25,006 nt of DNA from a virus. Positions 4,598-19,444 of this stretch are shown in pieces. Below the pieces are notes generated by a model. It ran no database searches, was not told where the DNA came from, and saw nothing but the letters and a program-made list of their open reading frames with translations. The stretch is taken from positions 1-25,006 of IMG/VR virus record IMGVR_UViG_3300021963_003708. One strand, 5' to 3'. Every line of letters begins with the position of its first letter. Positions within the stretch are counted from its first letter, which is position 1. Made by a program: the position numbers and the translations under genes.

Positions 4598-4732
4598 TTA
4601 GATAATTTCGTAGTCTTCTTTACCGCAACCACATTCAGGGCAGACAAAATCATCAGGTAAAGTATTCCAATGACCTTCTGTCTCATCATCATGTTCGTGG
4701 CCACATACTACACACACATGTACTTCATTCAT
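4598..4732 (-). CDS. Rubredoxin
   Basis: 44-aa iron-sulfur electron carrier. The two Cys pairs are CVVCGH (C7, C10) and VCPECG (C31, C34), with the aromatic and loop residues expected between them (HWNTLPDDFVCPECG) and the typical end GKEDYEII. It is slightly shorter than free-standing rubredoxins (about 52-54 aa). It starts on the stop codon of the rubrerythrin-like gene (TAATG, one shared base), so the two are translated together. In classical rubrerythrin these two domains are one polypeptide. Here they are separate, and rubredoxin is the likely electron donor to the diiron partner. Residue identity is secure by motif; the functional pairing is inference. Confidence 0.93.
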   Translation of the reverse strand: MNEVHVCVVCGHEHDDETEGHWNTLPDDFVCPECGCGKEDYEII

Positions 4733-5196
4733 TATAATGTCTCCAATACTTCTTTATATGCATTTGCATGACGTTCTTCTACTTTCTTTAAAGCATGAAA
4801 ACGCTTTTCAGCTTTGACGAGTAGTTTCTTAAATTGTTCGGCATGTTCAGCACTTTCAACAATTTGATTTCTAAATTCGTTGAGTGTAATTGTATCACCT
4901 TCAACAAGTGCTTCTGCTTCAAATTTAGGATACATTGTAGTGAACTCATATGTCTCACCCTCAATGGCCTTTTCTAAACATTCTTTCGTTGATGGTTTAC
5001 CAATCAACAATTCAAGATGACCCCACGCATGTAGAATCTCTTGGTCTGCTGTGTGTTCAAAGTGTTTAGCAACATCTTCGAAACCTTCTTCACGAGCAAT
5101 CTTTGCAAAGTAGCGATACTTGATGTGAGCCATTGATTCACCTGCAAGTGCGCTTTCTAAATTTTGTAATGTGTTTGATACTTTATCAAATGGCAT
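4732..5196 (-). CDS. Rubrerythrin-type ferritin-like diiron protein
   Basis: 154 aa from ATG at 5196, chosen because AAAGGAAATAA precedes it; upstream in-frame TTG is unsupported. Four-helix ferritin-like domain with carboxylate/His motifs: E20 (ALAGESMAH), E53xxH56 (DQEILHAWGH), FEAEALVEGD (E93, E95, E99) and a fourth-helix cluster ESAEHAEQF (E114, E117, H118, E120). This matches the diiron domain of rubrerythrin, which reduces H2O2 to water. The C-terminal rubredoxin domain is absent and encoded by the next gene. A likely role is peroxide protection of the infected cell; host benefit is inferred. Confidence 0.88.
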   Translation of the reverse strand: MPFDKVSNTLQNLESALAGESMAHIKYRYFAKIAREEGFEDVAKHFEHTADQEILHAWGHLELLIGKPSTKECLEKAIEGETYEFTTMYPKFEAEALVEGDTITLNEFRNQIVESAEHAEQFKKLLVKAEKRFHALKKVEERHANAYKEVLETL

Positions 5197-5206
5197 TTTA
5201 TTTCCT

Positions 5207-5620
5207 TTATTTCGTTTGTTCAGCAAGTTGTTTATAACCTTGCATTGTTGGGTGAACTCCGTCAGAGCTCATATGTTTTTCTGGTCTCGAAAGAACAGTA
5301 TCACCATATTCTTGTGCAATTTTTTCAATTGCTGTTTGAGGAATAGGTTTACGTTCTTTACCAGGACTAATCCAAAAAACACGTTTACCTTTAATGCTTT
5401 CACGCATCTTTCTTAATTCGGCTTCGGTCTTAACACCTTTGTGGTCATTTGCACCAAGACTAATAATAATTGTCTCAAAGGGTTTTGATGATGCTTTGTC
5501 CAAATAATCTTTATTCCATTGCCAACTATTCCAACCACCTCTAGAATAACTAACACACTCTTTACGAACAATAGAAACACCAACAGCGATACTATCGCCA
5601 ATCACCATACAATCAATCAT
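5207..5620 (-). CDS. SGNH/GDSL-type hydrolase
   Basis: 137-aa alpha/beta hydrolase. Block I is VIGDSIAVG (nucleophile S10), block II is the Gly of YSRGG (G28/G29), block III is LGANDH (N58) and block V is SSDGVHPTMQGY (D120, H123). All four SGNH residues are present. No signal peptide is visible, so it probably acts in the cytoplasm or is released by lysis. The family cleaves esters such as acyl or acetyl groups on lipids, glycans or peptidoglycan; the substrate is unknown. Its stop overlaps nothing, but its start overlaps the stop of the MazG-like gene by 4 bases (ATGA). Confidence 0.85.
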   Translation of the reverse strand: MIDCMVIGDSIAVGVSIVRKECVSYSRGGWNSWQWNKDYLDKASSKPFETIIISLGANDHKGVKTEAELRKMRESIKGKRVFWISPGKERKPIPQTAIEKIAQEYGDTVLSRPEKHMSSDGVHPTMQGYKQLAEQTK

Positions 5621-5985
5621 TTTTTAACGAACCTTGTAAAATCGGGTTTCTTCCAACCCTCTGGTTTAAGAACTTTTCCATCTTCACGCTTCAAAACTTT
5701 TCCTGTTACACGGTCAATCTTCTTCAGGTTACTCAAAGAACCTTCATCCCAAATACCGTCACACTTCCAACCACGAGATAACATATAACCAACGATGACC
5801 CAAATTGTATCAAAACAGGCATCTGCTGTTTCTACATCATCACCTTTAGTTACAGCGTCAATGAATTCATTGTATTCTTCGTTGATTAAACGGCGATACA
5901 GTAACGCTTGGTCTTCATTGTCTTCGGTTGTGGTTTGTCCCGCTGCGTTCATAAAGACATGCACATCAGTAAAAACTTTAGTCAT
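5617..5985 (-). CDS. MazG-like nucleoside triphosphate pyrophosphohydrolase
   Basis: 122 aa, all-alpha NTP-PPase type. The Mg-binding signature is visible: LINEEYNEF (E36, E37, E40) followed by VETADACFDTIWV (E52, D55, D59), then a helix YMLSRGW. The C-terminal part (GKVLKREDGKVLKPEGWKKPDF) is the substrate-lid region seen in phage PRA-PH/MazG-like enzymes. The family hydrolyses NTPs or dNTPs to NMP and pyrophosphate, cleaning up non-canonical nucleotides or lowering alarmones. Start shares one base with the upstream cytidylyltransferase stop (TAATG). Confidence 0.8.
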   Translation of the reverse strand: MTKVFTDVHVFMNAAGQTTTEDNEDQALLYRRLINEEYNEFIDAVTKGDDVETADACFDTIWVIVGYMLSRGWKCDGIWDEGSLSNLKKIDRVTGKVLKREDGKVLKPEGWKKPDFTRFVKK

Positions 5986-6449
5986 TATAATTTATCTTTC
6001 CGTAATTCATGTTCGTAGGTTCTTTGGCGTAATTCACTTGAACTAAATCTATGTTTACGTGAGTTGTACCAAATTTTGATACTACGTTCTTCACAAATTT
6101 GTTTACCTGTGAATTCTTTTCCTTCATATTCTTCACCAATAAAACGAATGTTGATTGGTAAGAACATTAGTAAATCTTCTAAGTCTTTTTCGGTTTGATA
6201 TACAATAATTTCATCAACAAATTTCACAGCGGACAATTGAACATATCTTTCAACTACCGATTGAACTGGTTTGTTTTTTGTATTTGGTCTATCAATTGTT
6301 GGGTCGGTTTGTAGTGCGACAATTAGATAGTCACATACTTGTTTTGCTTCTGCAAGCATTAAGATATGACCTGCGTGTAACAAGTCAAAGGTTGAACAGG
6401 TGAAACCTACTGGTTTACCAATCATTTCATCAGGTAAAACTAACATCAT
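5985..6449 (-). CDS. TagD-like cytidylyltransferase (glycerol-3-phosphate cytidylyltransferase family)
   Basis: 154 aa. Nucleotidyltransferase motif FDLLHAGHILML (HxGH at 25-28) and the C-terminal RFSSSELRQR, equivalent to the RTSTT-x-LR signature. GFTCSTFD opens the Rossmann-like fold. The family transfers CMP from CTP to glycerol phosphate or a related alcohol phosphate, so it may feed modification of surface polymers or lipids. Two adjacent ATG codons compete as starts: GGAG lies 4 bases before the first (6449) and 7 before the second (6446). Located directly after the pqqA terminator. Substrate is uncertain. Confidence 0.85.
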   Translation of the reverse strand: MMLVLPDEMIGKPVGFTCSTFDLLHAGHILMLAEAKQVCDYLIVALQTDPTIDRPNTKNKPVQSVVERYVQLSAVKFVDEIIVYQTEKDLEDLLMFLPINIRFIGEEYEGKEFTGKQICEERSIKIWYNSRKHRFSSSELRQRTYEHELRKDKL

Positions 6450-6462
6450 ATAACTCCATTAT

Positions 6463-6500
6463 GAAAAGAAAACCAAGACGTACAGATGCAGAGGTCTTGG
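6463..6500 (-). terminator. Rho-independent terminator after the pqqA-like gene
   Basis: Minus-strand stem CCAAGAC/GTCTTGG (7 bp) with a 14-base loop, followed by TTTTCTTTTC. It lies 20 bases past the pqqA-like stop and before the next RBS, so the minigene is probably a monocistronic unit. Confidence 0.6.
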
Positions 6501-6519
6501 CCGTGTTACTAATATGTAT

Positions 6520-6594
6520 TTAGCGATTCATCACATACATTGTGATTTCAAATCCAAAACGCATATCAGTAGCTGAGGGTGTAGTCCATTTCAT
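6520..6594 (-). CDS. pqqA: PqqA-like peptide (PQQ cofactor precursor)
   Basis: 24-aa ORF starting MKWTTPSATD and ending EITMYVMNR. It keeps the PqqA signature: Trp near the N-terminus (W3), Pro (P6), D10, R12, G14, and Glu and Tyr separated by three residues (E16, Y20), with an NR C-terminus as in the Klebsiella 23-aa peptide. In PQQ biosynthesis the Glu and Tyr side chains are cross-linked by PqqE after PqqD binding, and become the cofactor. A strong RBS (TAGGAG, 7-8 bases before ATG), an upstream TATAAT and a downstream terminator frame it as an expressed minigene. No pqqB-F genes are visible here, so host enzymes would be needed. The short length leaves a residual chance of coincidence. 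Confidence 0.82.
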   Translation of the reverse strand: MKWTTPSATDMRFGFEITMYVMNR

Positions 6595-6612
6595 AGTAAT
6601 TCTCCTATTTTG

Positions 6613-6664
6613 TGTGGATTAATTTCCACATCCTTATATTATAACAATACTGCATCAAAATCAA
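6613..6664 (-). promoter_or_regulatory. Promoter and hairpin leader of the pqqA-like gene
   Basis: TATAAT lies at 6643-6638 on the minus strand. TTGATT is 15 bases upstream (or TATTGA at 17), so the -35 is imperfect. The leader contains a hairpin TGTGGA-AATTAA-TCCACA (6630-6613), then the RBS. The hairpin could protect the 5' end or control translation. Confidence 0.5.
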
Positions 6665-6676
6665 TAGAGAAAATCA

Positions 6677-6859
6677 TTAATTTTCTTTTTTATCCTTAAC
6701 TTCTTCCATATACAGAACACCATCTTTCATTTCAAGGTTCAAAACGGTGCCTTCTTTCCAACCCATATCTTCAAGTAAGTCGGTAGGAAGTTCAAGAATA
6801 GCATCACCATTCTCACAAATTTCTGCAACATTTGCGGTATATGTTTTAGATTCGTTCAA
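6677..6859 (-). CDS. AbrB/SpoVT-like swapped-hairpin small protein
   Basis: 60 aa starting MNESKTYTANVAEI. The stretch ENGDAILELPTDLLEDMGW followed by KEGTVLNLEMKDGVLYMEEV matches the beta-hairpin, short helix and hairpin layout of AbrB/MazE-type swapped-hairpin proteins. In those, a dimer binds DNA through the first hairpin. This copy is acidic, which is unusual for a DNA binder, so it may bind a protein instead. Its start overlaps the end of the dCMP deaminase gene by 14 bases. Confidence 0.65.
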   Translation of the reverse strand: MNESKTYTANVAEICENGDAILELPTDLLEDMGWKEGTVLNLEMKDGVLYMEEVKDKKEN

Positions 6860-18166: not shown

Positions 18167-19444
18167 TTAACGACCAACTTGGCAGAGATACTTATCTTTT
18201 GCCTGTTCCCATGTTAGGTAACATAGGTCATCATAGAAAAGGGTATCATTATTATTACGACTTTTCTTTACTAACTGTTTGATACGGGGTTTCGCATGTT
18301 TGGTTTTCCAAATCTCAACCAATGCCTCTACGCTTGTATCAAACGATTTAACCAAGTCTTTATCTTCAATTTTTTTGTTTAGATAATCAATACTGTTATC
18401 ATATAAAGGTGACCAGTAAATACCACGAGCATGGTCTGTACGAATCAATTCTTTAGGAATGTCCAACTTACTATAAACAAATTGTAATGAACGATTCTTA
18501 TGGTCACGCTTATGTGGTTGTCCTGATGGTTTCTTTGCAACATACCATTCAAAATACTTGCGTGTATGTTTAGCACGAAGCCAATCACGAATCTCATAAC
18601 GAGTATCTTTCTCAGGTTCAAATGATACAGAACCTGCGGTGAAACCCATTTTCTGCCAGTGGTCTAGACCATCATACTGTGATAGACCATCGGCCTTTGT
18701 ACGACCATATAATGATGTAGTTGTTACCGAAACAAGTGTGTCACCATAAAGTTTCTTCCATAATTGTTGCACAGGGTCAGCAAGGCATAACAATGCAAGT
18801 AGTTTACCACCAACGTAATTGAAACCAAGTGGTTGCAAAGGAACAATTGTAGAGCCGATTGCAGAATGATTAATCATACCGCCTTGTGTTTTCAACTCTC
18901 TTGGCCAACCAATGTGATTGTCACGAGGTGTCAGGTCAAGGAAGTCAGATGAAATACAAATAACACCAAGATATTTCTTAGTTACTTTATCACGGATAAC
19001 AAAGTTAAGATTACGCCCAATGTTAGAATTGTTCTTCATTGTTGATGAGAATGTTCTAATACAATTCCAAAGTTCAGGCAGGTCTGCCTCTTTGTTTGTA
19101 TAAAGCATTTCAGGTTGTAGATTCAAATAATCTTCAGGTGTTTCAGGTACCCAAAAATTAGATTTGACTTCTGCAATTGCACGGCGTTGACCTTCATCAG
19201 CAAGAACCCGTGTCTCACCTTCCCACAAATCATTCACAACAACCGATGGGTACTTGTCTTGAACCTCACACCACTTTTGATATAGTGTGTATTCTTTAAC
19301 ATCCATACCAGAAACAAACGTGAGGTCTTTGATAATCTTATCACGCAATACTTCGTCAGTTAAAATGGCAGGTTCAACATTGTGTTCTTGCCATTTTGTC
19401 CATTGTGTTTCTACATCATCTTTAGCGTCAAACGTATAACTCAT
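18167..19444 (-). CDS. DruA-like protein (DUF4338)
   Basis: 425 aa. The central region carries the pattern I associate with DUF4338/DruA: YLGVICISSDFLDLTPRDNH (159-177), IGWPRELKTQGGMINHSAIG, IVPLQPLGFNYVGGKLLALL and DPVQQLWKKLYGDTLVSVTT. DruA is a component of the Druantia anti-phage system, and the domain also occurs in stand-alone and transposase-linked proteins. Here no other Druantia component is present and the gene shares one base with the deformylase stop (TAATG), so it is part of a phage operon. A nucleic-acid role is plausible. The family call rests on motif memory and is moderate. Confidence 0.6.
   Translation of the reverse strand: MSYTFDAKDDVETQWTKWQEHNVEPAILTDEVLRDKIIKDLTFVSGMDVKEYTLYQKWCEVQDKYPSVVVNDLWEGETRVLADEGQRRAIAEVKSNFWVPETPEDYLNLQPEMLYTNKEADLPELWNCIRTFSSTMKNNSNIGRNLNFVIRDKVTKKYLGVICISSDFLDLTPRDNHIGWPRELKTQGGMINHSAIGSTIVPLQPLGFNYVGGKLLALLCLADPVQQLWKKLYGDTLVSVTTTSLYGRTKADGLSQYDGLDHWQKMGFTAGSVSFEPEKDTRYEIRDWLRAKHTRKYFEWYVAKKPSGQPHKRDHKNRSLQFVYSKLDIPKELIRTDHARGIYWSPLYDNSIDYLNKKIEDKDLVKSFDTSVEALVEIWKTKHAKPRIKQLVKKSRNNNDTLFYDDLCYLTWEQAKDKYLCQVGR

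What the first reader, a model, noticed from the sequence alone, without database searches (positions are those of the whole stretch)
6463..6664. PqqA-like cofactor-precursor minigene in a T4-like phage, with its own promoter, hairpin leader and terminator
The 24-codon ORF has the PqqA signature W-x-x-P, D-x-R-x-G and E-x-x-x-Y (E16, Y20) with an NR end, nearly the layout of the Klebsiella peptide. It has TAGGAG before the ATG, TATAAT upstream and a stem-loop plus T-tract downstream. No other pqq genes are in the window. The phage may supply extra precursor peptide to boost PQQ production, and hence periplasmic dehydrogenase activity, in the infected host. The conserved Glu and Tyr argue for true PqqA rather than a chance ORF. 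Other T4-like genomes may carry it unannotated because of its size.
Basis: partly seen in the sequence, partly recalled or inferred. Interest (0 to 1): 0.85.

Follow-up and report, generated by a model that had tools for sequence, protein, structure and literature searches.

The report
Phage-borne gene for cofactor raw material
A T4-like phage carries a genuine 24-amino-acid PqqA gene, the peptide that bacteria consume to make the cofactor PQQ, and the same tiny, mostly overlooked gene sits in well over two hundred other viral sequences, including nine sequenced phages of methanol-eating bacteria.

Summary
Window 6520-6594 (-) encodes MKWTTPSATDMRFGFEITMYVMNR, a clear PqqA: Pfam PF08042 41.5 bits (cut-off 21.1), NCBIfam TIGR02107 38.1 (cut-off 20).

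The gene is under selection. In viral contigs found with patterns that left Glu and Tyr free, 240 of 240 copies (205 distinct sequences) keep both, with synonymous change. Five syntenic phages keep the promoter, leader hairpin and RBS. The terminator is real (5 of 7 pairs compensated) but predates pqqA: pqqA-less relatives have it.

Viral pqqA is solitary: each of 50 larger viral records has one copy, none with PqqE or a PQQ dehydrogenase above cut-off. It lies unannotated or antisense-annotated in nine Methylophilales phage isolates. P19250A's peptide is identical to that of likely hosts, which themselves often keep several scattered copies (149 of 150 family genomes have pqqA).

Best explanation: the phage adds the consumable substrate of host PqqD/PqqE, raising PQQ for host dehydrogenases. 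The boost is inferred. The window's own host is not established: its variant was absent from 187 genomes of that family.

Phage PqqA was reported before (Lake Baikal, 2020). New are its breadth, solitary nature, fixed chemistry and cassette form.

The parts
6520..6594 (-). pqqA: 24-codon gene for a PQQ precursor peptide, MKWTTPSATDMRFGFEITMYVMNR; E16 and Y20 match the residues cross-linked by PqqE
   Evidence: conservation
6602..6607 (-). ribosome-binding site TAGGAG
   Evidence: purine-rich RBS in 237 of 247 distinct viral loci against 19 in shuffles
6614..6629 (-). leader hairpin GTGGA-AATTAA-TCCAC in the 5' UTR
   Evidence: GTGGAAAT...TCCAC kept in five syntenic phages, so pairs mostly do not vary
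6635..6643 (-). -10-like element TATAATATA
   Evidence: identical in all six syntenic sequences
6661..6673 (-). conserved upstream promoter element TTTTCTCTATTGA
   Evidence: identical in all six syntenic sequences; single exact copy in the window
6464..6500 (-). intrinsic terminator: CCAAGAC / GTCTTGG stem then TTTTCTTTT
   Evidence: 5 of 7 pairs show compensatory double changes, 100% paired in 6 sequences; also present in relatives without pqqA
5985..6449 (-). downstream neighbour: cytidylyltransferase-like gene
6677..6859 (-). upstream neighbour: 60-aa protein of PHROG 661 (function unknown; AbrB-like by eye)

Best explanation
The locus is a genuine pqqA gene acquired by a phage as an accessory cassette. 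The phage makes only the precursor peptide. Host PqqD binds it, host PqqE cross-links Glu16 to Tyr20, and host protease, PqqB and PqqC finish PQQ. Because one PqqA is consumed per PQQ, an extra strongly expressed copy can keep PQQ supply up during infection, so that periplasmic PQQ dehydrogenases (methanol dehydrogenase in methylotroph hosts) keep delivering electrons for phage production. Shown here: gene identity, selection, solitary state, accessory presence or absence, and presence of the partner enzymes in the likely host family of related phages. Inferred: expression in infection, processing by the host, and the metabolic benefit.
For: Family scores at nearly twice the cut-offs. E and Y unchanged in 240/240 viral copies with those positions free in the search; pN 0 with pS 0.8-1.0 at these codons; whole-core dN/dS 0.10 and 0.08, partly lowered by positions fixed in the search. 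Each of 50 larger viral records: one pqqA, no PqqE and no PQQ alcohol dehydrogenase above cut-off. Nine Methylophilales phage isolates carry it; P19250A's peptide equals that of 1.3-Mb genomes of the likely host family. That family: pqqA in 149/150 genomes, often several scattered copies, PqqE over cut-off in 57/60, hexulose-phosphate synthase in 59/60, PQQ dehydrogenase in 23/26. A PQQ-producing methylotroph has five pqqA copies, three of them separate, and a study cited there made PQQ by adding purified PqqA to a cell extract (PMC9851590). PqqE chemistry at Glu16/Tyr20: PMC10906245.
Against: No transcript, peptide or PQQ measurement for any phage was found. In A. pasteurianus a partial construct (apparently pqqAB) raised PQQ by 29%, the whole pqqABCDE cluster eightfold (PMC7936290), so substrate may not be limiting everywhere. 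The window's exact core (DMRFGFEITMY + V/I) was in 0 of 187 host-family genomes and 2 of 399 of the wider order, so its host, and that host's pqq genes, are unproven.
Confidence: 0.75

Rival explanations
1. Decoy: phage PqqA floods PqqD/PqqE and slows host PQQ production, for example to redirect SAM, iron-sulphur chemistry or carbon.
For: It would also be a solitary substrate-like peptide with strong expression signals.
Against: A decoy need not keep the cross-linked Glu and Tyr, yet both are invariant in 240/240 copies. Some phage peptides are identical to host PqqA, which is simply more substrate.
Confidence: 0.08
2. The peptide has a second role (signal, regulator, or precursor for another radical-SAM enzyme or phage-host conflict) rather than serving PQQ.
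For: Seven of 50 viral records carry weak, below-cut-off radical-SAM matches. A metatranscriptome study linked a PqqA-type peptide family to defence-system co-expression in Pseudomonadaceae (PMC11118758).
Against: 43 of 50 records have no match to the PqqE model at E 0.001. Conservation centres on known PqqA positions and several phage types resemble host PqqA types.
Confidence: 0.1
3. Neutral passenger picked up by recombination, with no benefit.
For: The gene is short, host-like and absent beside the downstream gene in most relatives sampled (65 of 72 testable).
Against: Purifying selection, many different neighbour families (about 125 upstream, 138 downstream), and no decayed copies among relatives lacking it.
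Confidence: 0.05
4. Chance ORF.
For: Only 24 codons.
Against: 56.8 bits against at most 11.0 in shuffles; cross-phage conservation.
Confidence: 0.005

Closest known systems
Bacterial PqqA (PF08042 / TIGR02107), e.g. Methylophilaceae-like and Burkholderiales copies
   Same: Length, W-x-x-P, D/E-x-R-x-G, E-x-x-x-Y, NR/NK end; 18 of 22 core residues identical to the nearest bacterial forms compared
   Different: In a phage, without pqqBCDE; bacterial genomes have pqqE, although host copies are also often orphan
PqqA of Lake Baikal phage population VP_266 (PMC7678222)
   Same: T4-like, with peptide deformylase and glycerol-3-phosphate cytidylyltransferase, as genes of these kinds occur in this window; same proposed role
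   Different: That population also carries methanol dehydrogenase; none of the 50 records tested here does. That paper says P19250A has none of these genes, but it carries an unannotated pqqA
Enzyme-type phage auxiliary metabolic genes (psbA, mazG, phoH)
   Same: Host-derived gene proposed to sustain host metabolism in infection
   Different: Encodes a consumed substrate peptide, not a catalyst

Membership tests
PqqA precursor peptide | Matches curated family models above cut-off | tested here: met
   PF08042 41.5 vs 21.1; TIGR02107 38.1 vs 20
PqqA precursor peptide | Glu and Tyr four positions apart (E-x-x-x-Y), the PqqE cross-link site | tested here: met
   E16, Y20; invariant in 240/240 viral copies
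PqqA precursor peptide | Selection at the protein level | tested here: met
   dN/dS 0.10 (D type), 0.08 (E type), with the caveat that some positions were fixed by the search; at E and Y, which were free, pN is 0
PqqA precursor peptide | PqqE/PqqD available in the same cell | tested here: inconclusive
   PqqE in 57/60 genomes of the host family of related phages; the window's own host is unknown
PqqA precursor peptide | Cross-linked by PqqE and converted to PQQ | not testable with these tools
   needs biochemistry
Phage auxiliary metabolic gene | In a virus genome, not host contamination | tested here: met
   On one contig with T4-like gp43 polymerase and gp44 clamp-loader genes; nine complete phage isolate genomes carry it
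Phage auxiliary metabolic gene | Alters host metabolism in infection | not testable with these tools
   no infection data

The most novel reading that the evidence does not exclude
Unrelated phages of methylotrophs have repeatedly acquired the consumable substrate of a cofactor pathway, without its enzymes, because PqqA supply limits PQQ in infected cells: a substrate-only class of auxiliary gene, overlooked because it is too short to be annotated.
Probability: 0.5. Interest if true: 0.75.

Novelty: new member of a known kind. Interest (0 to 1): 0.55.

Why it matters
Methanol oxidation by small aquatic methylotrophs is part of the carbon cycle, and PQQ is its cofactor. A gene this common in their phages, missed by annotation, suggests that PQQ supply matters in infection and makes a simple test possible: is the precursor peptide the limiting part? 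It also warns that gene callers drop short auxiliary genes, and it corrects the published statement that phage P19250A carries none of these functions.

Tried and rejected
First pattern in viral contigs had one base missing and found nothing. The search for related loci refuses a 24-aa query. Single-linkage clustering of neighbourhoods collapsed 244 of 282 loci into one group and was discarded; only counts of immediate neighbour families are used. 'Acinetobacter phage MD-2021a' hits were rejected as phage evidence: the contig carries pqqB, pqqC, pqqD and a radical-SAM gene beside ppk, so it looks bacterial. A guessed accession for phage HIM624-A was another phage, so I cannot say whether HIM624-A, MEP431-434 or Venkman EXVC038S (names) carry pqqA; 'nine' counts the isolates that matched, not a fraction of all. 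Alphaproteobacterial-type PqqA: only 5 viral contigs, not pursued. Two regex errors and two failed scripts were corrected and rerun. Assigning the window to a Methylophilaceae host was considered and not accepted. Structure prediction was not possible for a peptide under 30 aa.

Full report
Observation. The minus-strand ORF at 6520-6594 encodes MKWTTPSATDMRFGFEITMYVMNR. It matches Pfam PqqA at 1.2e-10 and NCBIfam TIGR02107 at 9.3e-10, both far above the curated cut-offs, and no PHROG. A PSSM from bacterial PqqA gives 56.8 bits; the best score in 25 shuffles of the window was 11.0. The window is T4-like: gp43 polymerase and gp44 clamp loader, the polymerase nearest to cyanophages and marine virus contigs at about 50% identity.

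Relatives. tblastn of the peptide against 50,697 phage records hits nine Methylophilales phage records (P19250A, Venkman, MEP301, MEP401, MEP402, four Melnitz variants), one spring-water podovirus, and two records named Acinetobacter phage. The phage loci read carry complete ORFs. In P19250A, Venkman, MEP301, MEP401 and MEP402 nothing is annotated there; in Melnitz and the podovirus an ORF is annotated on the opposite strand. The Acinetobacter record is a bacterial-type pqq operon and is set aside.

Breadth and selection. Two further patterns left Glu and Tyr free: 119 and 120 contigs, both again stopped at the limit. With the window, 240 copies and 205 distinct core sequences resulted, and all 240 keep Glu and Tyr. 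Both codons for each residue are used (TAT 105, TAC 100; GAA 194, GAG 11). dN/dS over the core is 0.10 and 0.08; at the weakly conserved positions 2, 3, 5, 6, 7 it is 0.77 and 0.37. Positions fixed by the patterns lower the whole-core figures; the Glu and Tyr result does not suffer from this.

Anatomy. Five phages with the same gene order (L072, L035, L098, L134, L018) keep TTTTCTCTATTGA, TATAATATA, the GTGGAAAT...TCCAC hairpin and the RBS; L072, L035, L098 and L018 are close to each other, so this is fewer than five independent cases. Across 247 distinct viral loci, a stem plus T-tract follows within 90 nt in 111 against a mean of 1.2 in mononucleotide shuffles, TATAAT precedes in 77 against 28, and an RBS in 237 against 19. 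Of 282 loci, 54 have pqqA opposite to both neighbours, and neighbours fall in about 125 upstream and 138 downstream families. The terminator after the window's pqqA shows compensatory changes at 5 of 7 pairs, but the same stem precedes the next gene in relatives without pqqA: pqqA appears to have entered in front of an older terminator. Among 72 testable relatives of the downstream gene, 7 have pqqA adjacent, all with Glu and Tyr; in the other 65 no remnant was found.

Solitary gene and hosts. In 50 larger viral records there is exactly one pqqA each, no PqqE above cut-off, and no PQQ alcohol dehydrogenase; these records may be incomplete. In three 1.3-Mb genomes the three copies are scattered and encode MWTTPAATEMRFGFEVTMYVMNK, the same peptide as phage P19250A and 24 of 120 E-type viral copies. 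Other phage types resemble other bacterial types, for example L051 and a 2.1-Mb genome differing at one core residue. The window's peptide is 18/22 identical to both the Methylophilaceae-like form and a Burkholderiales form, and its exact core was in 0/187 and 2/399 genomes, so its host remains open.

Mechanism. PqqE joins Glu16 and Tyr20 of PqqA held by PqqD; a protease, PqqB and PqqC follow (PMC10906245). A PQQ-producing methylotroph has five pqqA copies, three separate from the operons, and a cell-free study cited there converted added PqqA to PQQ (PMC9851590). This last condition is an inference; one engineering study found a larger effect from the whole cluster than from a partial one (PMC7936290).

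Known and new. Phage PqqA was reported in a Lake Baikal T4-like population with the same idea (PMC7678222); a 2026 paper lists viral pqqA, pqqE and pqqD (PMC13188868). In the papers on Melnitz, Venkman, MEP301 and the MEP401 lineage held here, 'pqqA' does not occur in the text. New are the breadth, the presence in isolates, the fixed cross-link residues, the solitary state and the cassette form.

Noticed in passing
window 18167-19444 (-): 425-aa protein matching Pfam DruA of the Druantia anti-phage system (8.7e-17), in a T4-like phage genome.
   Followed up: no
window 4598-4732 and 4732-5226 (-): Rubredoxin and rubrerythrin genes side by side; homologues of both lie near pqqA in several other phage loci (L019, L021, L057, L065, L075, L123).
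   Followed up: partly
G005, G330, G414 (whole genomes): Bacterial genomes with 9 to 12 pqqA copies: a Methylophaga MAG with 9, two Methylophilaceae-like genomes with 12.
   Followed up: partly
L321, CAKLQF020000010.1: A record named Acinetobacter phage MD-2021a carries ppk, pqqB, pqqC, pqqD and a radical-SAM gene and looks like bacterial chromosome.
   Followed up: partly
Melnitz MZ577097.1 76100-76195; MW202481.1 2067-2195: Annotated hypothetical genes on the strand opposite pqqA, probably spurious.
   Followed up: yes
L545-L549: Five viral contigs with alphaproteobacterial-type PqqA (for example MKWSAPIVQEVCVGMEVTSYDSAEIDTFN), far fewer than the beta/gamma type.
   Followed up: no
L117 (364-kb contig) and L119 (231-kb contig): pqqA also in contigs of jumbo-phage size.
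   Followed up: no
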